A stretch of DNA of 21,408 nt from a virus, in the IMG/VR virus record IMGVR_UViG_3300025671_000644, positions 1 through 21,408 of that record; one strand, written 5' to 3'. The notes beneath the pieces were generated by a model. That model worked only from the letters and a program-made list of their open reading frames with translations, was not told the DNA's origin and ran no database searches. Of this stretch, positions 212 to 17,473 are shown piece by piece. Within the stretch, counting starts at the first letter, position 1. Each line of letters starts with the position of its first letter. The position numbers and the translations under genes are program-made.

Positions 212-423
212 CTACCCTCCGGCTTTAGGATGTAATCACAATGAAAGCCCTTCGCCGTACTGCTCGTGTTCGGTGTGTCCATCAAGTTCCAAATTTGAAA
301 TGGTGGCTCATCAAAGTATTCTTCCATCTCTCCGCGCGGCTTAAGGAATCTCCAGCAATGCAGTTTATAAGGACATTCGCGACCGTCGCATACTTTTATA
401 TCATGATGCTTTTCTTCTTTCAT
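208..423 (-). CDS. Small Cys-rich phage protein
   Basis: This 71-residue protein has four cysteines: C12, C17 and C23 in the N-terminal CDGRECPYKLHCWRF segment, and C62 in a C-terminal FHCDYIL segment. The layout (CxxxxCPxxxxCxR, then a late Cys before an aromatic) resembles small phage proteins I have seen in Bacteroidota phage operons; they may bind zinc or another metal. That family link is from memory and the function is unknown. The start overlaps the amidase stop as ATGA, and its own stop overlaps the next start the same way. It is therefore translationally coupled on both sides, which makes it a real gene despite its size. Confidence 0.72.
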   Translation of the reverse strand: MKEEKHHDIKVCDGRECPYKLHCWRFLKPRGEMEEYFDEPPFQIWNLMDTPNTSSTAKGFHCDYILKPEGR

Positions 424-1004
424 TTAATCTTCTTTTCAATTTCGCGGATGGCTTCATAGTGCGCTTTGGCAACTTCCATTCTAAATTCGTCGGTCATCAT
501 CATCTCGAAATCCGCACCATTGAAGAAGCCGTTCTCGGTTAAGACGGCAGGACAGTTTGCGTTGCGCAGCACATAAATCCAACGCCCATCCTTGACACCT
601 CGATTGCGGAGCTTTGTGCGTCTGACTAGGTGCTTCTGAAATATCTCGGCAATCTCTTCGCCTTTTTCATTTGCAAAGGTCTCGACTCCGGTGAACTGGT
701 CATTGAACTGATTGCCCGGCCCTGCATTGCCGTGGATGCTGACAAATATCACATTGTCAAGCACATCGGTCAGGCCTTTGGTGTAGCCAGCTCTGAATTG
801 AACATCATCGGCATGATTCCGCGGCTGTGTAATGGTGACCGAATGGCGGATGCTGTGCGCTGTGAGTAGTTCAGACAATCGGCCTGCTACCTCTTGATTG
901 AACTCGTATTCAAGCAGTTGGCGGCCATCTTCGGTGATTGGTGAGCGCTTGCCGTGCGTCATTTCACCGTGACCTGGGTCTATTATGTAGTGGAATCTGC
1001 TCAT
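420..1004 (-). CDS. N-acetylmuramoyl-L-alanine amidase (Amidase_3 family)
   Basis: This is a zinc amidase that cuts the bond between N-acetylmuramic acid and the peptide stem of peptidoglycan, a probable endolysin. From the chosen start it has 194 residues. Visible motifs are DPGHG (zinc ligand H12), the acidic ligand in LEYEFN (about E34), SIHGN (H91), and TENGFF with catalytic E157, in the family order. There is no signal peptide, so it would need a holin or another route to the wall. The open frame extends up to 1133, but that extension lies over the preceding small gene and reads as low-complexity Arg/Leu. The ATG at 1004-1002 lies one base after that gene's stop and sits just before the first conserved strand, so I use it. 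Confidence 0.93.
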   Translation of the reverse strand: MSRFHYIIDPGHGEMTHGKRSPITEDGRQLLEYEFNQEVAGRLSELLTAHSIRHSVTITQPRNHADDVQFRAGYTKGLTDVLDNVIFVSIHGNAGPGNQFNDQFTGVETFANEKGEEIAEIFQKHLVRRTKLRNRGVKDGRWIYVLRNANCPAVLTENGFFNGADFEMMMTDEFRMEVAKAHYEAIREIEKKIK

Positions 1005-5038: not shown

Positions 5039-6154
5039 TCAGTTTAGTACTACTGGCATAATCAACACGAAATCTTGGCTGTCGGTTTCATGCTTGATAA
5101 TAGCCGCCTTGTTTGGGTCTGTCATAAGTAGTGTGATTGTCTCGGTTGCGTATGAATCAACTGCCGCCATCAGCATCTTCACGTTGAATCCGATGTTCAT
5201 CGCTGTCGGGAAGTTTTCTGAATGGACTTCAAAGGTCTCATATCCTTCGCTGTTCATGTCCAGGTCTTGCGCTCCTATTGTGATGCGGTTGGTTCCATCT
5301 ACTTTGTCAAGTGTCAGTTTGATTTGATTGGTCTGAGTGTTGGTGAAGTTAGAAATTCGCCTCAGGGCTCCGCTGAATCGCTCCCGGTCTATTTCGACAA
5401 TGCAAGTATGATTGGTTGGTACTACTTGTTTGTAGTTCGGGAAGATGGCATCTATTAGCTGGAGGTAGATGTATGTCGTGCCGTCTTCGATTTTCATAAA
5501 GTTCTCGTAAAATGACAGCTTTACATCTATTGCTTCGATGATTGAGGCTGCTGCATTTACTTCCTTCGCAGGTACCACTACACGCAACTCATCAGATACC
5601 TCGACATCATTAAAAGTCGTAGAGCTCAGCATGTGGGCATCTGTTGCTACGATTCTGATGGCTTTGTTCTCTGTCTCGAACAGTAGTCCTGTCATCGATG
5701 GCCTGAGTTCATCTTTCGAGACGGCAATGATGGTGCGCGCAATGTTGTCTTTTAGCTCAGAAGTATCCGCTTTGAACATCGTTGAGAACTTGCCCAATTT
5801 GACTGTGTCAGGATATTGGCCAGTTGGTTCGGTGGCTAACTTGTAGACGCCTTGGGCTGATTTGACCGTGATGTCTGTCTCTGATAGGTGCAACTCAAGC
5901 GGTTGGTTTGGGAGGCTCTTGATTGTCTCAAGGAAGGTTTTAGATGGCACAAGGCAACTGAATGAATCTTTGAAGTCGCAATCCACTTGGCTCATGATTG
6001 TCATCTTGAGATTGGAGCCTGTTACCTGGAGGGTGTCGTGCCTAAAGTCAAGATAAAAGTTCGACAGAGTCGGATGAATAGGGTTTGGCTGAATGGCCTT
6101 GGCGCATTTGGTGAGCGCCTTGAGTAGGTTTGTTTTTGTGATTGTGGCTTTCAT
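5039..6154 (-). CDS. dnaN: DNA polymerase III sliding clamp (beta subunit)
   Basis: The beta clamp is a ring that tethers polymerase and other enzymes to DNA. At 371 residues it has the usual length for a full three-domain bacterial clamp. Recognisable stretches are RPSMTGLLFE and IVATDAHMLS (end of domain 2, first strand), FPNYKQVVP in the domain 2-3 region, and the C-terminal FVLIMPVVLN, which matches the MPxxL end that lines the ligand-binding groove. A phage copy could recruit host Pol III or phage enzymes with clamp motifs; the methyltransferase fusion at 14379 ends in such a motif. It lies between ssb and the packaging genes. No clamp loader or polymerase gene is seen here. Confidence 0.93.
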   Translation of the reverse strand: MKATITKTNLLKALTKCAKAIQPNPIHPTLSNFYLDFRHDTLQVTGSNLKMTIMSQVDCDFKDSFSCLVPSKTFLETIKSLPNQPLELHLSETDITVKSAQGVYKLATEPTGQYPDTVKLGKFSTMFKADTSELKDNIARTIIAVSKDELRPSMTGLLFETENKAIRIVATDAHMLSSTTFNDVEVSDELRVVVPAKEVNAAASIIEAIDVKLSFYENFMKIEDGTTYIYLQLIDAIFPNYKQVVPTNHTCIVEIDRERFSGALRRISNFTNTQTNQIKLTLDKVDGTNRITIGAQDLDMNSEGYETFEVHSENFPTAMNIGFNVKMLMAAVDSYATETITLLMTDPNKAAIIKHETDSQDFVLIMPVVLN

Positions 6155-7702: not shown

Positions 7703-8323
7703 TCACAATTCACAAAGTAGCATTCGCACCTCTTGGAGCTCATCCTTTGTCAGAGCCGCCCTAAGTTTCTCGACAATCTTTATTGGGTTGCGCTGCATCT
7801 GAATGTATTCCTTTCGTATCCCAGCCTTGATACTTGCCTGGTGCGCTGACAATTCACCTGAGAGTACTTTCTGAGCCATCTCAGGGTTATCGCGTTTGAG
7901 GCGAGCGATTATGTAGTTTTGTCCTGAAGTGCTGTATTTCATCACCTGAGCATTAAACCTGTTAATAACAGGTTTTTCAGGCCTTCCTTGTGGCCCTAAA
8001 TCCCCAGCAAGTTCACTTCTTACTTCCTCCTTAATCCTATCCGGCACATAGTCAGCCCATTTGCGCAGATCCTCGCGCGTGCATTGGAGGCCGTGTGGAA
8101 TATGTGCCGCAAGAAAGTCATCAAGGGTTTCATGTCTCACTTCCTCACCTGTGTGCGGAATAATGAAATGCTTGTACTTGATTGTGCCATCCGGGTACTT
8201 TTCAAAAAGCATGTTTATCAAGTCAGGTACTACTGATGTGTTGCTTTTGTGTTCGCTGATTGACCTGGCAAGTGTCGGTATCATTTGGCCGACAAGTTTA
8301 GGTGTACTTATTTTGTTTTCCAT
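7703..8323 (-). CDS. Conserved phage-type protein with a C-terminal ARLKRDxPE...AGIRK motif
   Basis: This is a 206-residue protein. The C-terminal third holds YIIARLKRDNPEMAQKVLSG followed by ELSAHQASIKAGIRKEY. I recall this pattern (ARLxRDxPxxxxxVxxGExSxxxAxxxAGI) from phage, cyanobacterial and Bacteroidota proteins; it looks like a helix-turn-helix, so DNA binding is plausible. The N-terminal two thirds are unrecognised. The ATG overlaps the stop of the HNH-helicase by one base inside TAATG, so the two are translationally coupled and probably work together. The function is unknown. Confidence 0.72.
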   Translation of the reverse strand: MENKISTPKLVGQMIPTLARSISEHKSNTSVVPDLINMLFEKYPDGTIKYKHFIIPHTGEEVRHETLDDFLAAHIPHGLQCTREDLRKWADYVPDRIKEEVRSELAGDLGPQGRPEKPVINRFNAQVMKYSTSGQNYIIARLKRDNPEMAQKVLSGELSAHQASIKAGIRKEYIQMQRNPIKIVEKLRAALTKDELQEVRMLLCEL

Positions 8324-10293
8324 TACTTAAGTGTTTTTACAAATGCTTCTAAATTATTTTCATTTCTGATGTCAATAGACAATTCATTCAAATACGAATC
8401 CACTTCTTTCAGTGTTTCGATGTCATTGTCGTGCTTTTGGCCAATTGGCCCGAATTTGAAATTGACGTGGCGGCCAACTTTTTCCCATACTTGTACATGG
8501 TCGAAATACCCTTTATTCAGGATGTAACCAGCTATTTTGTTTTTCTTTTTTGAAATTCCATCATAAAACGATTTCATTATAGCCGCCGGGTCATCGCAGA
8601 ATGAATCTGTCAAATTTGTTACTTTATCCGGAACTTGAAATTTCTCCATAAAGGCCTGAATCATTCTCACCTTATCGTCAGGAGGGAGTATTGTACTGGT
8701 TGATGCAAGCATACTCTCAACAATATCTATCGCTTGCTGAGAATGTTGTATGCCATCAGATATGTGAGTTATCTTGTCAAGATCTTCAACAGTCAAATCA
8801 ATATCAATTCCATTTCTTTCTCTTGTATCGCCATCAAGATCAAGGTCTGAATATTCAATTGACTTTTCAATTTCCTGTCGTATATCTGCAATCTTTATTT
8901 CCTCCAGTACTTGCTCGGAATGTCGCTTTAGTTCTGGATGCTCCAAGATGTAGGCATAGCTGTAATTGACACATTTGGTACTCTGACTCCTCCTGTATTC
9001 ATCCTGAGTTACGCGAATTGTTCGGCCAACAATGGACTGCATGAAATAGAGATAGGTCTTATAAATGGACAGATAAACCCCAACGCGCAAGCGCGGAATG
9101 TCGACGCCTTCAGAAATCATGTTAACCGCGATAATACACTCATCCTCTGAATCCTTAAATCTCTGTATTTCTTTTGAGCTTGCTTGGTCTTCAGATGTCA
9201 CAACAGTTGATTGGATGTTGAAGGTCGGAGACTCCAGCCATCTTTGCAATGCGTATGCTGTATTTTTATCTGGAGCAAAAAGAATCATTCCAGCATTTGG
9301 CATGTCGGCATTTCTGATTTCTTGAAGCTTTGAATATGCGTGATCAATCACATCAGCAAGGTCAATGCTTTTCTCACTTACAAGCGCCCTGTATGCTAAA
9401 TTTAGTTGATTCTCTTTTTCGATTTCAGACAAAAGGCCATTGTAAGGATACTTGCCTTTCATGTCAATCTTAGGATCATAAAAGCTAAATTGAATCTTGC
9501 GACTGTTGCCATCATTAATTGAATCAGCATAACTGTACCCGTAATCAATTTTATATCCGTTAGGCACAAGCTCAAGAAATGGAATCCTCATATTGTCCTC
9601 GCGCCAAAATGTTCCGGATAGACTTATCACTCTTTCAGCATTTGAAAAAGCAAGTTGCGCGTAAGTTCCCCAGGCGCTGTGTCCGGATTCGCTCAGATGG
9701 TGTATCTCGTCAAAGACAACTGCAACATTATGTTTTTTGCAGAACTTGTTTATCTCTTTTGCGGTCGATTCATTGAGGCCTGCGTATGTCATCACAGCAC
9801 CGTCAAACATTTTTTTCTTGATTTTTCTATCGCTCGAATAATCCAACTGAATTGGAATTCCAAAGTAGGCAAGGAAATCCTCGCGCCATTCTGGTTTCTT
9901 GTTTTCTTGTGGGCTGATGACAAAGAAGAAATCAATTTTTTTAACTTCCAAAAGATAATCAATAATAAATGCAGCAGTCTTTGATTTTCCCGCCCCAGGT
10001 ACTGCGCCTATTGAATAGACTTTCTTATCTCGAGTTATGTAGTCAAGATAACAATTTCGTTGCCAAACTCGAGGCTCAAACGTCTTCCTTTTTACTTTCA
10101 TGGTATTGGATTTTGAAAGATTACACGACGGACAAAGTGCCTGACCATTTGCCAGATGAGTTTCTCCGCCTTTTGAAAATGGAATAATGTGATCAGCGTG
10201 CCAGTTTTCGGGCAGGGGTTTACCGCAGGATTGGCATCTTCCTTCTGATGTGTTGTACAGCGATTTTCGCTGGGCTCCTGAGAATGCTCTCAT
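8323..10293 (-). CDS. HNH nuclease fused to an SF2 DNA helicase
   Basis: This is a 656-residue fusion. Residues 18-62 are an HNH domain with a zinc site: C20 and C23, the core H32-A-D34-H35, N49, and C54 and C57, so the catalytic and structural residues appear intact. A superfamily 2 helicase follows: Walker A GAVPGAGKSKT (96-106), DEIHH box (195-199), SGT motif III (226-228), and motifs V/VI in NMISEGVDIP and QSIVGRTIRV (to 428). The last 200 residues are helical, acidic in part, and unrecognised. It could be a structure-specific nuclease-helicase for phage DNA processing or a defence-type protein. The gene is more AT-rich than the clamp and terminase genes, hinting at separate origin, and it heads a four-gene unit with its own promoter and terminator. 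Confidence 0.9.
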   Translation of the reverse strand: MRAFSGAQRKSLYNTSEGRCQSCGKPLPENWHADHIIPFSKGGETHLANGQALCPSCNLSKSNTMKVKRKTFEPRVWQRNCYLDYITRDKKVYSIGAVPGAGKSKTAAFIIDYLLEVKKIDFFFVISPQENKKPEWREDFLAYFGIPIQLDYSSDRKIKKKMFDGAVMTYAGLNESTAKEINKFCKKHNVAVVFDEIHHLSESGHSAWGTYAQLAFSNAERVISLSGTFWREDNMRIPFLELVPNGYKIDYGYSYADSINDGNSRKIQFSFYDPKIDMKGKYPYNGLLSEIEKENQLNLAYRALVSEKSIDLADVIDHAYSKLQEIRNADMPNAGMILFAPDKNTAYALQRWLESPTFNIQSTVVTSEDQASSKEIQRFKDSEDECIIAVNMISEGVDIPRLRVGVYLSIYKTYLYFMQSIVGRTIRVTQDEYRRSQSTKCVNYSYAYILEHPELKRHSEQVLEEIKIADIRQEIEKSIEYSDLDLDGDTRERNGIDIDLTVEDLDKITHISDGIQHSQQAIDIVESMLASTSTILPPDDKVRMIQAFMEKFQVPDKVTNLTDSFCDDPAAIMKSFYDGISKKKNKIAGYILNKGYFDHVQVWEKVGRHVNFKFGPIGQKHDNDIETLKEVDSYLNELSIDIRNENNLEAFVKTLK

Positions 10294-11381: not shown

Positions 11382-11500
11382 TTGCGCCCCATGTCAAGTC
11401 TCAAATCAAATACCTTCTGCAAATTCCAGACCTCCGTGTTTTTCTCGGCCATTTGTCGGAACTTCTTTCGTTGGGCTTCCTTCCACTCAGAAAGGGACAT
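11378..11500 (-). CDS. 40-residue charged protein
   Basis: This is a short basic helical protein, MSLSEWKEAQRKKFRQMAEK followed by NTEVWNLQKVFDLRLDMGRK. The frame is open back to 11563, but the ATG at 11500-11498 gives only a 14-base overlap with dnaB. Its stop overlaps the next start as ATGA. No family is recognised. The overlaps on both sides support a real gene; function unknown. Confidence 0.62.
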   Translation of the reverse strand: MSLSEWKEAQRKKFRQMAEKNTEVWNLQKVFDLRLDMGRK

Positions 11501-12821
11501 TATCGGTGTCGGTGTATGGGGTTGTAATTTCTGGGGGATAGTTCGCGTCTTTTTCTGCTTCATAAATAAATGAAAAGTTTGGATGTTTCATAAGTTCCAG
11601 CTGACCAGTTTCTCCGTGCCTATTTTTCTCGAAGATTAAATGTACAACATCTTCGGTGGAATTTCCATCATCATCAGTTTCAATGTTGTAGTATTCTGGA
11701 CGATGGATGAAAATGACTGAATCGGCATCCTGCTCGAGCGATCCCGAATCGCGAAGGTTATGAAGTGAAGGCGGCCTGCCCTTTGAGCCTGTGACAGATT
11801 CCCGATTAAGCTGAGACAAACACAAGATACAAGCATCAAGGCGGTCTTTTGCAGCAGACTCCTTTAGCCTCCGACTCATGTACCCAATCTCACCATTTCG
11901 ATTATTCTGATACCCCTCTTTACTCATCAACTGCATGTAGTCGATTATGAATAGCTCAATCCCAAACGATTCTTTCATGCTATACATCAAATCGAGAATC
12001 ACCTCAAAGTTACCTGGTGGGTTTTCGAGATACAAGGGCAAGTCCCCAATTTCCTCCGCCGCCTTGTAAACCTTTCGGAATTGGTCATCGGTTAAGTTCC
12101 CACGACTAATATCCGAATAAGAGATTCCAGTTGCAGCTGCAAAAAGTTTCTTTTCGATTTGGCTGGGTGACATTTCGAGGGTAATGATACCAACCTTACC
12201 GCCAGCTTTCGCGGTATTGTAGGCAAGACACAAGGCCATGGTAGTCTTACCCATCGCAGGACGCCCAGCCAAATAAATGAGGTCTGAGGGCTGCCATCCA
12301 GCAAGTCGGTCATCAATCGTTGTGTAGCCGCTGCTTGGCCCTAACAGTTTGAACTTACTACTCATTGCCCTTTCAATTTCTTGAATTGTTTCAATTGCAT
12401 AATAGCTCCTCTTATCCTCAGCACTAGCGTTTGCAATTAGATTCTCATATTCTGAAGTGATTTGCGCCATCACTTCCCCGTGCTTGGCTCCCTTGGATAG
12501 GTTCATGGTGTTGGCAGTCAAGATTCCAACCAGACCCTTTCGTATATTTTCCGTATAGAAATTCTGAATGACCTCCTCACTTGATTGCCGAAGGTCAGGG
12601 GCAACTGTGATGTAGTCGTATAGTTGATTAGGCTGAAGTCCTGCATTTTGCGCAATGTAGTTGACATCTATGGCTTGGAACTTGTCAAGGCACTCCCATA
12701 TCGAATCGGCCAGTGTCTTGTTTGACGCGCCAAACATCTCAGGAGAGAGCTGACTTGTGACATTGCGCAGATTGACCTTACCCTTGAGAATCGTTCCGAG
12801 AACTATTGCTTCTGTGTCCAT
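11487..12821 (-). CDS. dnaB: Replicative DNA helicase, DnaB family
   Basis: This is the hexameric 5'-3' helicase that unwinds DNA at the phage fork. It has 444 residues. The N-terminal helical domain covers about 1-100. The RecA-like motor carries Walker A GRPAMGKTT (186-194), Walker B LFIIDYMQLM (290-299), SQLNR (336-340), LRDSGSLEQDAD (356-367) and KNRHGETG (399-406). The C-terminal end is TDTDNVPF, resembling the acidic tip of SSB proteins. It overlaps the 102-residue gene by 19 bases, and that gene lies between it and the initiator, where phages often keep a loader. A TAnnTTTG promoter match lies inside it. Confidence 0.96.
   Translation of the reverse strand: MDTEAIVLGTILKGKVNLRNVTSQLSPEMFGASNKTLADSIWECLDKFQAIDVNYIAQNAGLQPNQLYDYITVAPDLRQSSEEVIQNFYTENIRKGLVGILTANTMNLSKGAKHGEVMAQITSEYENLIANASAEDKRSYYAIETIQEIERAMSSKFKLLGPSSGYTTIDDRLAGWQPSDLIYLAGRPAMGKTTMALCLAYNTAKAGGKVGIITLEMSPSQIEKKLFAAATGISYSDISRGNLTDDQFRKVYKAAEEIGDLPLYLENPPGNFEVILDLMYSMKESFGIELFIIDYMQLMSKEGYQNNRNGEIGYMSRRLKESAAKDRLDACILCLSQLNRESVTGSKGRPPSLHNLRDSGSLEQDADSVIFIHRPEYYNIETDDDGNSTEDVVHLIFEKNRHGETGQLELMKHPNFSFIYEAEKDANYPPEITTPYTDTDNVPF
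12005..12035 (-). promoter_or_regulatory. Candidate promoter inside dnaB
   Basis: TAACTTTG (12012-12005) with TTG (12035-12033) exactly 20 bases upstream. It is within coding sequence and could be chance; if real it would transcribe the 3' part of the operon down to the RuvC-like gene. Confidence 0.22.
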
Positions 12822-13111
12822 GCGTCTCGGTGTTTGATAAAGTAATCATTGCAAAGCTCACTCAGTCCAGCCTGTGAAACCACGCGCACCAACATCTTCA
12901 TCATCGGATCACCAAGCACCTGCTTTGTGTCTCCTTTATATTTCTCGAATAAGCGCCCCATCTGCTCATCCGCGGTCTGGTGAATGATAGCAAGGTCTTT
13001 CTCCCTCTCTCTTCTATTCGCCTCTTCAATAATCATCTTCGCCATCTCTTGATTCCCATCCCTGACCAATTGCCGGCTTGTCTCGATTGCTTTTTCCATT
13101 TCTGAATTCAT
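12803..13111 (-). CDS. Hypothetical protein between initiator and DnaB
   Basis: This is a 102-residue, highly charged, helical protein (MNSEMEKAIETSRQLVRDGN at the start, REREKDLAIIHQTADEQMGR in the middle). It has one cysteine, no ATP-binding motif and no membrane segment. The start overlaps the initiator stop as ATGA and the 3' end overlaps dnaB by 19 bases. In several phages the gene between initiator and helicase encodes a helicase loader or adaptor, so that role is possible here. It lacks the AAA+ motifs of DnaC-type loaders, so it would have to be another type. The assignment is from position only. Confidence 0.72.
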   Translation of the reverse strand: MNSEMEKAIETSRQLVRDGNQEMAKMIIEEANRREREKDLAIIHQTADEQMGRLFEKYKGDTKQVLGDPMMKMLVRVVSQAGLSELCNDYFIKHRDAWTQKQ

Positions 13112-13992
13112 GGCTTTAGTTTTTTGCCGATCTCGGCCAGTTTATTAAATTCGTTGACATCACCCGGAACCACTCCCGAACTCGTAGCCGACCTCATCGA
13201 TGGGTCATCTTGCTTGAGTGGTTGGAGACTTGCTAAGATAGCAGATTTGATTTCTGAAGTTGTACGCCCTGAGGAAAGATGTTCAACGGTTTCTCGTAAG
13301 GGCTTCCATGCTCCGTAGTCAATCGAGGCATTGCGGCCAACGTATTCATTGAAATAATCCACCACCTCGCGGATCTGGGAATCGAAGCGTTCAGCCCCCA
13401 TGTCGTGCAGTCGAGATGAGAGTCTATCATTTTTCAAAAATTCAATCCCCCTTTTCTTTATTTCTTCTTCTTTATATTTATGTACAACTTTTTCGGGGGT
13501 ATCGTACGAAAAAGTGTCCGAAAGTCCGTATGGTGGACTATTCTTAAGTGATTGATTTTCATTTGACTTAGGTGTACGACTTTGCGTACTGTTTTGAGTA
13601 CGACTTTTTGCGGTTGAGCGTACAACTTTTGTACGACTTTTATCCTCCAAATTATTATAAGTGTCGTAGTTGCAAATAGTTACAAGCGTTATGTTCGTAC
13701 AAATTTCTGTCTTTATCATGCCCTCTTTTTGAAGCCTTTTCATGAAGTACTGGACTTTTGAGATTGTCCAATATTCATCTTTTGGCCCATTAAAACCTCG
13801 AACCAGATATCTGATTGGAGCAGCTAATTGTCCACGTTTTACGAATATTCCGCGGCCGCTGATGGTCAGCCATTGGTCCTTCCATTCAGCTTCAAGGATC
13901 ATCCATATCCATGCGTGAAACCATTCCTTTTTATCTCTGAATATCCAGCTATCTCGAATCTTTCGGTGAAGCTTTATGTATCCTTCATTCAT
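13108..13992 (-). CDS. Phage replication initiator (winged-helix replisome organiser)
   Basis: This is a 294-residue protein that probably binds the phage origin and recruits DnaB. Residues 1-110 look like the winged-helix domain of phage replication proteins (MNEGYIKLHRKIRDSWIF..., then KVQYFMKRLQKEGMI as recognition-type helix and a beta wing). Residues 115-175 are a Ser/Arg/Thr-rich linker with repeated KSRT and SRTQ. Residues 180-260 are helical with VVDYFNEYVGR and YGAWKPLRE. The ATG at 13992 is chosen because the open frame upstream (to a TTG at 14058) runs through an intrinsic terminator. Iteron-like repeats lie in the linker-coding part. Family assignment rests on domain look and gene order; helicase loading is inferred. 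Confidence 0.82.
   Translation of the reverse strand: MNEGYIKLHRKIRDSWIFRDKKEWFHAWIWMILEAEWKDQWLTISGRGIFVKRGQLAAPIRYLVRGFNGPKDEYWTISKVQYFMKRLQKEGMIKTEICTNITLVTICNYDTYNNLEDKSRTKVVRSTAKSRTQNSTQSRTPKSNENQSLKNSPPYGLSDTFSYDTPEKVVHKYKEEEIKKRGIEFLKNDRLSSRLHDMGAERFDSQIREVVDYFNEYVGRNASIDYGAWKPLRETVEHLSSGRTTSEIKSAILASLQPLKQDDPSMRSATSSGVVPGDVNEFNKLAEIGKKLKP
13487..13515. repeat. 9-bp inverted repeat next to the outlying iteron
   Basis: ACTTTTTCG (13487-13495) and CGAAAAAGT (13507-13515) pair perfectly around 11 bases that include the palindrome CGTACG in part. It overlaps the iteron copy at 13482 and lies beside the AT-rich tract. Confidence 0.4.
13574..13641 (+). repeat. Iteron-like GTACRACTTT repeat array
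   Basis: The copies are GTACGACTTT (13574), GTACGACTTTTT (13598), GTACAACTTTT (13620) and GTACGACTTTT (13631). On the coding strand the copies at 13574, 13598 and 13631 read as [KQ]SRT, while the copy at 13620 and the outlier at 13482 read as KVV in another frame. The DNA sequence, not the peptide, is therefore what is repeated. Confidence 0.65.
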
Positions 13993-14012
13993 TGTTTTTG
14001 ATTTACGGACAT

Positions 14013-14056
14013 AAAAAAAGCCAGCGAGCAGGACGGGACATCTGGAGCTCGCTGGC
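14013..14056 (-). terminator. Intrinsic terminator in the initiator leader
   Basis: GCCAGCGAGC (14020-14029) and GCTCGCTGGC (14047-14056) form a perfect 10-bp stem, 8 of 10 pairs G/C, with a 17-base loop. On the minus strand it is followed directly by seven T (14019-14013). It lies 20 bases before the initiator ATG and after the promoter at 14120-14150, so it would stop transcripts before the replication genes unless overridden. Confidence 0.85.
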
Positions 14057-14107
14057 AATGATTATGAGAAAAACCTTACTTGTCTTTGCTTGTAGGATGT
14101 CCCGTCC
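14031..14107 (-). promoter_or_regulatory. Attenuator-like leader with a 12-bp antiterminator option
   Basis: The terminator loop carries GGACGGGACATC (plus strand 14031-14042). Its perfect reverse complement GATGTCCCGTCC is at 14096-14107, upstream in the transcript. In RNA order this is segment a, stem strand b, a', b'. Only one base separates a' from b', too few to span a 12-bp helix, so the a:a' helix and the terminator stem should exclude each other. That is the layout of a terminator/antiterminator switch. The control signal is unknown. Confidence 0.6.
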
Positions 14108-14109
14108 AT
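14062..14109 (-). CDS. Putative 15-codon leader peptide
   Basis: An ATG at 14109-14107 opens MDGTSYKQRQVRFFS and stops with TAA at 14064-14062, five bases before the terminator stem. The start codon abuts and overlaps the 5' antiterminator segment (14107-14096), so a ribosome starting here would cover it and favour the terminator. Translation is not shown; a 15-codon ORF can occur by chance. Confidence 0.35.
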   Translation of the reverse strand: MDGTSYKQRQVRFFS

Positions 14110-14119
14110 GAAGCTTAGG

Positions 14120-14150
14120 CAAAGATAAGCGTATTAAATCAATTCTACAA
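14120..14150 (-). promoter_or_regulatory. Promoter of the replication operon
   Basis: TATCTTTG (14127-14120) matches TAnnTTTG and TTG (14150-14148) lies exactly 20 bases upstream, just after the 70-residue gene. A start about 5 to 8 bases downstream would give a leader of about 120 bases holding the leader ORF and the terminator before the initiator ATG. Confidence 0.7.
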
Positions 14151-14154
14151 GTGA

Positions 14155-14367
14155 CTACACAATACCCATCTTCGCCTCAAGCAGTTTCATGTGTGTCTCA
14201 ATCCTTGCCTTTTGGTCTTTATTGCGTGCGGACTTCTTCATCCGGTAGAACAGTTGCAACATCTTAGCCGGAGGCATCATCTCCCATCCGTACCAAGTGC
14301 GCCCGTCTTTTCCTATTCTTTTGCTTGTGTAGCAATTGATTTTGGTGTGGAATGTGTCTTGTGACAT
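14155..14367 (-). CDS. Hypothetical protein, 70 residues
   Basis: This is a basic protein of unknown family. It begins MSQDTFHTKINCYTSKRIGK, has a WYGWEMMPP turn in the middle and a Lys/Arg-rich helical C-terminal half (LFYRMKKSARNKDQKARIE). There is no membrane segment and no metal-site pattern; one cysteine. It lies 11 bases downstream of the methyltransferase fusion and 5 bases upstream of the -33 box of the replication promoter, so it closes the recombination-side operon. The start is an ATG with an A/T-rich lead. Confidence 0.68.
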   Translation of the reverse strand: MSQDTFHTKINCYTSKRIGKDGRTWYGWEMMPPAKMLQLFYRMKKSARNKDQKARIETHMKLLEAKMGIV

Positions 14368-14378
14368 AGTTGTTAAAT

Positions 14379-16553
14379 TTAGAAAAGTTTAGTTTGTAAT
14401 TCTGATTCAATAGCGAACTTGTGATTCTTCACATTAAGATTAAAGTAGCTTTCCTTCAACTCAATACTGATTGACTTTCTATTCATCTTAAGTGCCTGAT
14501 ATCCTTCTGAACCAATACCACCAAAAGGACTGAATACTGTTTCACCCTCATTGCTATACAAGTGTATTATCCTTTCGATAGTATCAAGTTGAAGAGGGCA
14601 AATGTGCTTTTCATCATTATTATCCTTTGCAGACCTGTATTGCAAAGTTCTGCTATAATTTACGTCCATCCAGACTGGACTTGCGTAATGCTGCCAAACA
14701 TCAACTGGCAAATAGTCTGGCTTAGATGGATCTGTATCCTGATGAGTAATTGGTACTTTATTTTCACCCTCATTCCTAAAGAAAAGTACATAATCCGGAA
14801 TGCCAACACATGACATTGATGAATCCTTCTTAATGGTCTTGTGTAAAAGCCCTAATGATTTGGTTCTTTGCATCTGAGTTACTGGATTCTTCCAAATTGT
14901 AACTCTTGAATGGTAAATAAAGCCCTCGACTGAGAACATATTCTGGATAATTCCAGAGAAGTCTCTTAGCCCAATAACTCCATCCAAGCTTTTACGCAAA
15001 GGCAAATCCATGCAATGAACTGCGCATATTCTTCCAGGCTTCAGTATTCTTTTTAATTGCGGAATTAAGTATGAGAAATGAGTCTTAAACATCTCATAAT
15101 TTGAGACATTACCCATATCTTTTGGATTGTCAGAATACACATACAGCTCTGCAAATGGAGGGCTGAACACAATCAAATCGACTGAATTATCCTCAATCTC
15201 AGCTGACCTTTCTACACAATCCCCATTCATCAATAAATACTTATCTGACTTCACAGTATCAGATTCAATCTTCGCCTTAAACTTATCAAGAGAAGTGTAG
15301 TCTGCCTGAGATGAATACTTACTCATTTCTTCAATCATTTCTTTGTGATTTTTTTGTTTTTGTAAAATTGATTGCCTTACATTTTTTTGGCTCTCTGGAA
15401 TCATTATATGTACATTTACATTCTCTGATTGGCCAAATCTGTATGAGCGCCTTACGGCTTGATAAAACTGCTCAAACTTAAAGTCATAGGAGCAAAATAC
15501 CATGTTGTGACAATTTTGGAAATTCATTCCAAAGCTGGCAATACTTGTCTTTGTGATTAAAACCTTAAATTCTCCTTTGGCAAATCCATTCAATTTATCC
15601 GCCTTAAATTCTGGAGTGTCGCTACCTTTTACGTTAACTGAATCATTTATCTTTTTTGCAAGAAGTTCCGATTCAGTATTTCTTAGTGTCCATATGATCC
15701 ACTGTTTATCTGAAGAATTTACAAGGTTGGCAGTTCTTTCCACTCTTTCATTCATAGACCTATTTAGGTCTTTATGTAGATCAGTAGCAGATACGGCAAC
15801 ATCAGCAAATAAGGAGCCGGTATTATTTTGGACTGGAATAATATGTTCAATGTAGTTTATTTTAGGTAAATCATAACCACATTGAGATTCATCAATTCTT
15901 TTTGGATTATCAAGTGACATAGAAAATGTGCAAATGTATTTCCAGAAGTCATCCTTTGCATGTTTCCTAAGCCTCCATTTCTGTGTCTCACCACCATCAT
16001 GAACAAAGAACATCGCAAGCATTTCAGCGTATGTCATTGTTCCCAAAAACTCACTATGCTGGCCAAGTTCCATGTGGTCATTTGGCGATGGTGTTGCGGT
16101 ACATGCAAGCTTATATTTGTAGTTCCTAAATGAATCTATAATAAGAGATGCCATTTTGCCATTACCCTTCAATATACTTGATTCATCTAATACAACTCCT
16201 TTATATTGTGTTAAGTCGCAATTCTTTAATTGGTCGAAATTCACAACATCAATATTTGACAAATCAACACCAAACTTATTAGCCTCTGATTTAGTCTGCT
16301 GCACAACTGACAAAGGTGCCAATATTAAAACCTTCGATTGAGTATGTCTTGAAACATGATATGCCCATTCAAGCTGCATGAAAGTCTTTCCAAGTCCGCA
16401 ATCCATGAAAAGAGCAAATCTACCTTTCTTAAGCGCTATTTTTACAGCATACTTTTGCCAATCAAATAAATTGTCATTCAATTCATTTACCTCAAATCCA
16501 GTATCTATCTGAATCCTTTTCTTAGAATTTATAAATTGATTATAATCTTTCAT
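14379..16553 (-). CDS. SF2 (SNF2-like) helicase fused to a DNA methyltransferase
   Basis: From the ATG at 16553 this has 724 residues. The N-terminal half is a superfamily 2 motor: CGLGKT (52-57), LDESS (122-126), TATPSPND (152-159), and motif VI QAVRRSYRFGQ (365-375). The C-terminal part is an N6-adenine/N4-cytosine methyltransferase with motif IV FSPPF (463-467) before motif I SPFGGIGSEG (675-684), an order typical of the beta class. It probably modifies phage DNA; no partner endonuclease is visible here. The protein ends QTKLF, which fits the Qxx[LIM]F sliding-clamp motif. The frame is open to 16679, but that part overlaps the exonuclease gene. The gene is clearly AT-rich (15361-15420 has 17 G/C of 60, against 30 of 60 at 16741-16800 in the exonuclease), suggesting later acquisition. 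Confidence 0.92.
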   Translation of the reverse strand: MKDYNQFINSKKRIQIDTGFEVNELNDNLFDWQKYAVKIALKKGRFALFMDCGLGKTFMQLEWAYHVSRHTQSKVLILAPLSVVQQTKSEANKFGVDLSNIDVVNFDQLKNCDLTQYKGVVLDESSILKGNGKMASLIIDSFRNYKYKLACTATPSPNDHMELGQHSEFLGTMTYAEMLAMFFVHDGGETQKWRLRKHAKDDFWKYICTFSMSLDNPKRIDESQCGYDLPKINYIEHIIPVQNNTGSLFADVAVSATDLHKDLNRSMNERVERTANLVNSSDKQWIIWTLRNTESELLAKKINDSVNVKGSDTPEFKADKLNGFAKGEFKVLITKTSIASFGMNFQNCHNMVFCSYDFKFEQFYQAVRRSYRFGQSENVNVHIMIPESQKNVRQSILQKQKNHKEMIEEMSKYSSQADYTSLDKFKAKIESDTVKSDKYLLMNGDCVERSAEIEDNSVDLIVFSPPFAELYVYSDNPKDMGNVSNYEMFKTHFSYLIPQLKRILKPGRICAVHCMDLPLRKSLDGVIGLRDFSGIIQNMFSVEGFIYHSRVTIWKNPVTQMQRTKSLGLLHKTIKKDSSMSCVGIPDYVLFFRNEGENKVPITHQDTDPSKPDYLPVDVWQHYASPVWMDVNYSRTLQYRSAKDNNDEKHICPLQLDTIERIIHLYSNEGETVFSPFGGIGSEGYQALKMNRKSISIELKESYFNLNVKNHKFAIESELQTKLF

Positions 16554-16558
16554 AGTCT

Positions 16559-17473
16559 TTACTTTATGAGGAACCGACGTGAGCCAGCAACCTCGGTGAG
16601 ATAATCGTTGTATAAATCTTGATTCTCGGTCTTGAATCGCTTCGCGTCGAACTTCTGCGAAGCTCTTGCAGCCTTCCAAGTAATTACAGGCTTCCCATCA
16701 TACAAGACCGCCTCACAGTCGCGCATGGTCATCTGAATCTGCGCCTTGAGTTCTTCCTTGCGAGATTTGAGGGCCTTTTCTTCGGCGGCAATATCTTGAA
16801 GCTCTTCGACCACGTCCATCACCTCCTGAGTTGCCAGCATTGATTTACCATCTTTGTGAGTCGGATGTTTTGAAAGCACATCGGCCACATTAACCAAAGG
16901 CGGCTCCTGGTCGGTAAGTACATGATTCAGCCAGAAGTTGTCAGCCTGTTCAGCCATGTACAAGAAATATTCCTCATTGAAGTCAATCTCAAGGTAACCA
17001 AAAAAGACACCTCTGGTTAACCAAGCCACCGCGCCCTTTTTGACTCCACAGATCCCCAACTGCCATTGAAGCTGAGAGAACCAGGTCAGCGGCAACTCAT
17101 CCGGGTCAACTTCCATCTGGGTACTCTTGCATTCAAGAATCCGACGCTCTCCATCGACCAAGTAAAAGCGGTCGGGACTCGCGGAGTAATAGTGCTTCTC
17201 AGAGTGGAACTGCACAGACATCTCATCGCTGCCCGGCTCGATTGGCCAGCCTGTTTCCTCTTCGAACATTTGGGCAATGATTGGCTCAAGAAGATGCCCA
17301 GCTCGCGTAAACTCGTTACCCTCGAAGGGTTCGGTGCGGCCTGTCTTAAGTAGCCACAAGTCTCGGGGAGTCTGATACTTGTTAAGTCCGAGAATCGTGC
17401 TGATCTCGGATGACCCAATGGAGCCCTTCCGGGCTTCCATGTGTTGGTCAATAGTTTCGAATGTTTGTTTCAT
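16559..17473 (-). CDS. YqaJ/lambda-type exonuclease (viral recombinase)
   Basis: This nuclease chews one strand from double-stranded ends to expose 3' single strands for the annealase. It has 304 residues. The nuclease core is in the N-terminal 200: IGSSE (19-23), LEP with E63, SPDRF with D101, LECKS with E114 and K116, and the QLQWQL helix with Q134 and Q138. The C-terminal 100 residues hold a coiled-coil-like Glu/Lys stretch (AAEEKALKSRKEELKAQIQ). RecT lies two genes upstream, the standard exonuclease-annealase pair. The next gene, the helicase-methyltransferase, starts five bases downstream. Confidence 0.93.
   Translation of the reverse strand: MKQTFETIDQHMEARKGSIGSSEISTILGLNKYQTPRDLWLLKTGRTEPFEGNEFTRAGHLLEPIIAQMFEEETGWPIEPGSDEMSVQFHSEKHYYSASPDRFYLVDGERRILECKSTQMEVDPDELPLTWFSQLQWQLGICGVKKGAVAWLTRGVFFGYLEIDFNEEYFLYMAEQADNFWLNHVLTDQEPPLVNVADVLSKHPTHKDGKSMLATQEVMDVVEELQDIAAEEKALKSRKEELKAQIQMTMRDCEAVLYDGKPVITWKAARASQKFDAKRFKTENQDLYNDYLTEVAGSRRFLIK

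What the first reader, a model, noticed from the sequence alone, without database searches (positions are those of the whole stretch)
13441..13641. Lambda-like replication origin hidden inside the initiator gene
Seen: GTACRACTTT at 13574, 13598, 13620, 13631 and a distant copy at 13482, with steps near one or two helical turns (a degenerate copy at 13586 fills one gap). The copies at 13574, 13598 and 13631 are read as [KQ]SRT, while those at 13620 and 13482 are read as KVV in a different frame. A repeat that keeps its DNA sequence across two codon frames cannot be explained by a repeated peptide. An AT-rich, strand-biased tract (13441-13480, 10 G/C of 40) follows on the 3' side. Known: lambda gene O holds four iterons followed by an AT-rich unwinding tract. 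Inferred: this is the phage origin and the encoded winged-helix protein binds it.
Basis: partly seen in the sequence, partly recalled or inferred. Interest (0 to 1): 0.85.

Follow-up and report, generated by a model that had tools for sequence, protein, structure and literature searches.

The report
Phage replication origin inside initiator gene
This phage appears to start copying its DNA at a cluster of short repeats hidden inside the gene for its own starter protein, and related phages swap the protein's DNA-reading half together with its repeats as one cassette; the principle is known from phage lambda and staphylococcal plasmids, but here it turns out to be a regular rule across a large phage protein family.

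Summary
Five exact AAAGTYGTAC copies (coding strand; GTACRACTTT on +) lie in the linker part of the initiator gene, in two codon frames; synonymous recoding gives 0.12 on average, never five in 10,000. The decisive evidence is natural mosaics. Contig L009 shares the window's DNA upstream and downstream (89-93%), but gene nt 42-513 (winged-helix domain plus linker) is replaced: the GTAC repeats are gone and a different array (ACGACCA, several frames) is there. L069 has the L009-type DNA-binding half and the same ACGACCA array, but another C-terminus, small ORF and DnaB. At the junction all three share a 22-nt AT-rich patch. So repeats travel with the DNA-binding domain. Of 133 non-redundant family members, 110 carry 11-bp-spaced in-gene repeats (22.5 expected; control regions 2/82, 4/133, 2/117). 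Best explanation: the phage origin; the encoded winged helix binds the iterons, the adjacent AT tract opens, and the phage DnaB is loaded. 'Lambda-like' is right as a working principle, not as membership: 11/12-bp steps instead of lambda's 18-mers, and no Phage_rep_O domain. RepA_N plasmids are as close an analogue. Binding and origin activity remain untested.

The parts
13108..13992 (-). Initiator gene (294 aa): winged-helix domain, disordered linker, helical C-terminal part
   Evidence: ORF; phrog_2514 E 3e-26; AlphaFold2 model
13651..13992 (-). Codons of the winged-helix DNA-binding domain (aa 1-114)
   Evidence: model, pLDDT mostly 89-96 over aa 11-110; helices 22-34, 60-67, 77-89, wing strands 93-98 and 101-106
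13697..13706 (-). Outlying iteron (1 mismatch) in the wing-tip codons, 66 nt upstream of the array
13631..13640 (-). Iteron AAAGTCGTAC
13620..13629 (-). Iteron AAAGTTGTAC (other codon frame)
13598..13607 (-). Iteron AAAGTCGTAC
13586..13595 (-). Degenerate iteron AAAACAGTAC (3 mismatches), fills a gap in the array
13574..13583 (-). Iteron AAAGTCGTAC
13482..13491 (-). Distant iteron AAAGTTGTAC beside the AT tract (other codon frame)
13441..13480 (-). AT-rich, purine-rich tract on the coding strand: likely unwinding element
   Evidence: 75% A+T; 22 nt at 13458-13479 identical in window, L009 and L069
13480..13951 (-). Specificity cassette (gene nt 42-513) replaced as a unit in L009
   Evidence: blastn breakpoints, 30-nt identity map
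13111..13470 (-). C-terminal part, shared with L009, replaced in L069 together with DnaB
12803..13111 (-). 102-aa ORF of unknown function, travels with the C-terminal part and DnaB
   Evidence: no family match
11487..12821 (-). Phage DnaB-type replicative helicase
   Evidence: PF03796 E 1e-63; phrog_19

Best explanation
The segment from about 13441 to 13706 is the phage's replication origin, embedded in the initiator gene. The initiator's N-terminal winged-helix domain (aa 1-114) binds direct iterons (core about GTYGTAC) spaced 11 or 22-24 bp, so that protomers sit on one face of the DNA. The nucleoprotein array strains the neighbouring AT-rich tract, which opens. The C-terminal domain then brings in the phage DnaB, encoded two genes downstream, perhaps with the 102-aa protein. 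Because the linker is disordered and tolerant, its codons can also carry the sites. Binding domain and sites lie in one stretch of about 470 bp and recombine as one specificity cassette. Shown: repeats beyond coding chance, their inheritance with the DNA-binding domain, family-wide 11-bp phasing. Inferred: binding, melting, helicase loading.
For: Repeats exceed a protein-preserving null in window, L009 and L069, each 0 of 10,000, and use several frames. L009: binding domain and repeats replaced together, flanks kept. L069: same binding domain and repeats as L009, different C-terminus and DnaB. In the survey, binding domains at least 90% identical always share the iteron, those 30-60% identical in 8-20% of pairs; several pairs share binding domain and iteron but not C-terminus. 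110 of 133 family genes have exact 7-mers at lag 11 in nt 240-570 (22.5 expected; 2/82, 4/133, 2/117 in control regions). A+T excess right after the array beyond codon expectation. DnaB gene two ORFs downstream. Confident winged-helix model. Experimental precedents: lambda/Stx O (PMC7466680), SPP1 gp38/oriL (PMC6316719), 80alpha ORF20 (PMC5499656), pSK41 Rep (PMC5703833).
Against: No binding or replication data. Only one independent swap of the binding domain against a constant C-terminus. GC skew shows no clear turn in this fragment. 23 of 133 family genes lack a clear array. A+T excess after the array is partly due to the encoded amino acids.
Confidence: 0.92

Rival explanations
1. The repeats are operators by which the initiator represses its own transcription or translation, with no role as an origin.
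For: Binding by the encoded protein would give the same co-inheritance with the DNA-binding domain; the array lies within the operon.
Against: Sites lie 350-510 nt inside the gene, not at a promoter (promoter-like sites found in 12700-14500: none); an AT-rich tract follows; helicase gene downstream; related systems with this layout are origins (PMC7466680, PMC5703833, PMC5499656).
Confidence: 0.05
2. The repeats reflect a repeated peptide or low-complexity linker coding, not DNA-level selection.
For: The linker is polar and repetitive in composition; three copies are read as [KQ]SRT.
Against: Protein-preserving nulls fail; 11-bp steps are not multiples of 3; 92 of 110 arrays use all three frames and strand orientation is 659 to 17.
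Confidence: 0.01
3. The repeats are a recombination hotspot that promotes exchange of replication modules and have no role in initiation.
For: The junction beside them is a recombination boundary in this phage group.
Against: The repeats differ between the exchanging phages, while the shared patch at the junction is the AT tract; repeat sequence follows the initiator's own binding domain.
Confidence: 0.02

Closest known systems
Phage lambda ori in gene O (and Stx-phage O, PMC7466680)
   Same: Iterons in the middle of the initiator gene, at about the same place (lambda nt 349-433, window 353-511), AT-rich tract on the 3' side, helicase step downstream. O-like PHROG profiles match both proteins (phrog_345: lambda 5e-17, window 6e-7).
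   Different: Lambda: four 18-bp units 20-24 bp apart, Phage_rep_O domain, P loader and host DnaB. Window: short units at 11/12-bp steps, no Phage_rep_O match, own DnaB.
RepA_N plasmid initiators (pSK41 Rep; natural hybrid pPR9, PMC5703833)
   Same: Winged-helix N-terminus, origin in the central linker codons, C-terminal helical domain; pPR9 replaced about 500 bp (N-terminal domain plus origin) while the C-terminal domain stayed, as in L009.
   Different: Plasmid, host helicase; the Rep boxes differ; no sequence match found here; only a moderate structural match (4pql/4pt7 Z 8.7/8.5, rmsd 6.3-6.8, close to unrelated winged helices).
SPP1 gp38/oriL and 80alpha ORF20 (PMC6316719, PMC5499656)
   Same: Direct repeats within the initiator gene (SPP1); 80alpha mutant not complemented in trans, origin annotated at gene nt 236-461.
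   Different: 80alpha gp20 belongs best to phrog_428, not phrog_2514, and shows no 11-bp array in my test.
DnaD-like initiators of isolate phages (PVL, StB27, Sulfitobacter pCB2047-A, Klebsiella ST101)
   Same: Same N-terminal domain family and in-gene 11-bp arrays.
   Different: Own iteron sequences and unrelated C-termini; annotated as loaders or hypothetical proteins, without an annotated origin in the stretches viewed.

Membership tests
Lambda O (Phage_rep_O) origin | iterons inside the initiator gene | tested here: met
Lambda O (Phage_rep_O) origin | AT-rich tract on the 3' side of the iterons | tested here: met
Lambda O (Phage_rep_O) origin | 18-bp iterons 20-24 bp apart | tested here: not met
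   about 10-bp units at 11, 22, 24 bp
Lambda O (Phage_rep_O) origin | Phage_rep_O (PF04492) N-terminal domain | tested here: not met
   no Pfam match for the window protein; lambda O matches at 6e-36
Lambda O (Phage_rep_O) origin | initiator binds the iterons and unwinds the AT tract | not testable with these tools
   needs footprint and unwinding assays
phrog_2514 DnaD-like initiators with in-gene 11-bp arrays | N-terminal winged-helix domain of the family | tested here: met
   E 3e-26, all 49 aligned members match
phrog_2514 DnaD-like initiators with in-gene 11-bp arrays | 11/12-bp stepped repeats in linker codons, outlying copy in wing codons | tested here: met
   window steps 11, 22, 24, outlier 66 nt upstream
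RepA_N plasmid initiators | RepA_N domain | tested here: inconclusive
   no Pfam match; structural match moderate and not above other winged helices
RepA_N plasmid initiators | origin in the linker codons; N-terminal domain plus origin exchanged as a unit | tested here: met
   layout compared with PMC5703833; origin activity itself not tested

The most novel reading that the evidence does not exclude
The survey shows an origin grammar common to a large, widespread phage initiator family: 11/12-bp-stepped iterons in the linker codons plus an outlying site in the wing-tip codons, most often exactly 66 bp (six turns) upstream. The iteron sequence changes in concert at these fixed places as the DNA-binding domain diverges. 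The tip of the DNA-reading wing would then be encoded by a copy of the very site the protein reads, tying protein specificity and site together in one stretch of DNA.
Probability: 0.4. Interest if true: 0.7.

Novelty: new member of a known kind. Interest (0 to 1): 0.52.

Why it matters
Origins of most uncultured phages are unknown. The rule found here (look for 11-bp-stepped repeats around nt 330-430 of DnaD-like initiator genes) points to a candidate origin in 110 of 133 surveyed genes and pairs each DNA-binding domain with its likely target. That makes recognition rules and replication compatibility between phages directly testable, and shows a natural specificity cassette of about 470 bp.

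Tried and rejected
GC skew for an origin turn: no clear signal in this fragment. Rfam: no hits. Mutual information between protein columns and iteron columns: the top pairs are trivial because the iteron itself encodes those residues (wing tip, linker start); leaving these out, recognition-helix positions remain on top, but only modestly. Foldseek alone gave no E below 0.001. Contigs L246-L249 carry two adjacent ACGACCAG copies but without a related DNA-binding domain beside them. A chimeric assembly as the source of L009 is unlikely: its flanks differ from the window by 7-11% on both sides, both crossovers lie within 480 nt at domain borders, and L069 independently holds the same cassette. 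A search with the C-terminal half found no further mosaics. Isolate phages hold no close DNA relative. The SPP1 record was not found under the accession tried.

Full report
Observation. On the coding (minus) strand they read AAAGTYGTAC inside a 294-aa ORF (13992 to 13111). Three are read as [KQ]SRT and two as KVV. Resampling synonymous codons with the phage's own usage gives 0.116 copies on average and at most two, against five observed (0 of 10,000). The copy at 13586 is weak. The AT-rich tract 13441-13480 is 75% A+T, matched or exceeded by 2.9% of 40-mers of the record.

The protein. It matches phrog_2514 'DnaD-like helicase loader' (E 3e-26, N-terminal half) and, weakly, O-like initiators (phrog_345, E 6e-7); Pfam has no model for it. 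An AlphaFold2 model built on 49 family members gives a confident winged helix (aa 10-110), a disordered linker (about aa 120-175) and a helical C-terminal part. The array lies in the linker codons; the outlying copy lies in the codons of the wing tip. A structural second look puts two initiator structures, 4pql and 4pt7, first (Z 8.7 and 8.5, rmsd 6.3 and 6.8), followed closely by many winged-helix proteins, so the fold class is supported but no closer kinship. Downstream follow a 102-aa ORF and a DnaB helicase.

Natural mosaics. L008 differs from the window gene at 19 bases, none between nt 220 and 566, and keeps all copies. L009 is a distinct phage: 89% identical upstream and 93% downstream, but without a blastn match between gene nt 42 and 513 (30-nt map). 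That stretch is the DNA-binding domain plus linker. L009 has none of the window's repeats; it has ACGACCA seven times in the gene, in all three frames, in part 12 and 22 bp apart, with an outlier in the wing codons at nt 289. L069 has the L009-type domain (88%) and the same ACGACCA array, but a different C-terminus, small ORF and DnaB. Inside the gene, the window and L069 share at DNA level only the first 41 nt and a 22-nt AT-rich patch at the junction; in the viral contig collection this patch occurs only in these phages. So there are two exchange units: binding domain with iterons, and C-terminal domain with helicase. The AT tract lies between them.

Family survey. I collected 160 loci with the N-terminal alignment; with the named phages this gave 133 non-redundant genes. 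Exact 7-mer repeats at lag 11 within gene nt 240-570 occur in 110 of 133 genes, against 22.5 after codon permutation; the same test gives 2/82 in the C-terminal part, 4/133 in the first 240 nt and 2/117 downstream of the gene. The lag spectrum peaks at 11 (1050 against 46 +/- 12), 22 and 12. An 11-bp step cannot come from a peptide repeat; 92 of 110 arrays use all three frames, and orientation is nearly always that of the gene (659 to 17). In 82 of 132 genes another copy lies at nt 225-300 (22-32 genes after permutation), most often exactly 66 nt upstream of the array (35 genes against 2-5); 75 of 82 gaps leave a remainder of 0-2 on division by 11. Shared descent of the two places may contribute to this regularity. 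A+T rises just after the array beyond codon expectation (+0.15 against +0.09).

Repeats follow the binding domain. Pairs with at least 90% identical binding domains always share the iteron; pairs at 30-60% do so in 8-20% of cases. Several pairs with similar binding domains but unlike C-termini share it; the only pairs with unlike binding domains and alike C-termini (window group against L009) do not. Iteron similarity correlates with binding-domain similarity (Mantel r 0.35, 0 of 2000 permutations); per residue the strongest is a position at the start of the recognition helix, which corresponds to I77 of the window and E77 of L009 (alignment). This last point is suggestive only.

Mechanism. 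Shown: repeats kept at DNA level, inherited with the binding domain, helically phased, next to an AT-rich tract and a helicase module. Inferred: the winged helix binds the repeats, the AT tract opens, the C-terminal part loads DnaB.

Known context. In lambda the origin lies in the middle of gene O (PMC7466680). In SPP1 gp38 binds direct repeats within gene 38 (PMC6316719). In 80alpha the ORF20 mutant could not be complemented in trans, pointing to an embedded origin (PMC5499656), and the record annotates one at gene nt 236-461. In plasmid pSK41 the origin lies centrally in rep, and pPR9 has replaced about 500 bp (N-terminal domain plus origin) while keeping the C-terminal domain (PMC5703833). 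The window case is therefore a new member of a known kind. I found no description of the family-wide 11-bp pattern or of the wing-codon site in the held library, but the main review (Weigel and Seitz 2006) is not held, so I do not claim novelty for it.

Noticed in passing
14010-14107 (minus strand, leader of the initiator gene): A GC-rich hairpin (CCAGCGAGC/GCTCGCTGG) followed by seven T, terminator-like, just before the initiator; its loop holds GATGTCCCGTCC, which is the perfect complement of GGACGGGACATC farther upstream (I4 and I9), so an alternative pairing (attenuator-like switch) is possible. Nearly identical in L069, different in L009.
   Followed up: partly
14379-16679 (minus strand): A fusion of a helicase (ResIII/Helicase_C) and an N6/N4 DNA methyltransferase in one ORF; absent in L069, where the flanking genes are adjacent.
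   Followed up: partly
8323-10293 (minus strand): An HNH endonuclease fused to a superfamily-2 helicase.
   Followed up: no
5039-6154 (minus strand): The phage encodes its own DNA polymerase III beta clamp, besides DnaB, RecT and a YqaJ-type exonuclease.
   Followed up: no
13487-13515: Perfect 9-nt inverted repeat ACTTTTTCG/CGAAAAAGT, 11 nt apart, overlapping the distant iteron beside the AT tract (I18); might extrude or mark the border of the unwinding element.
   Followed up: no
L009 and L069, gene nt 289: The alternative cassette carries its own iteron copy in the wing-tip codons, 77 nt (7 x 11) upstream of its array.
   Followed up: yes
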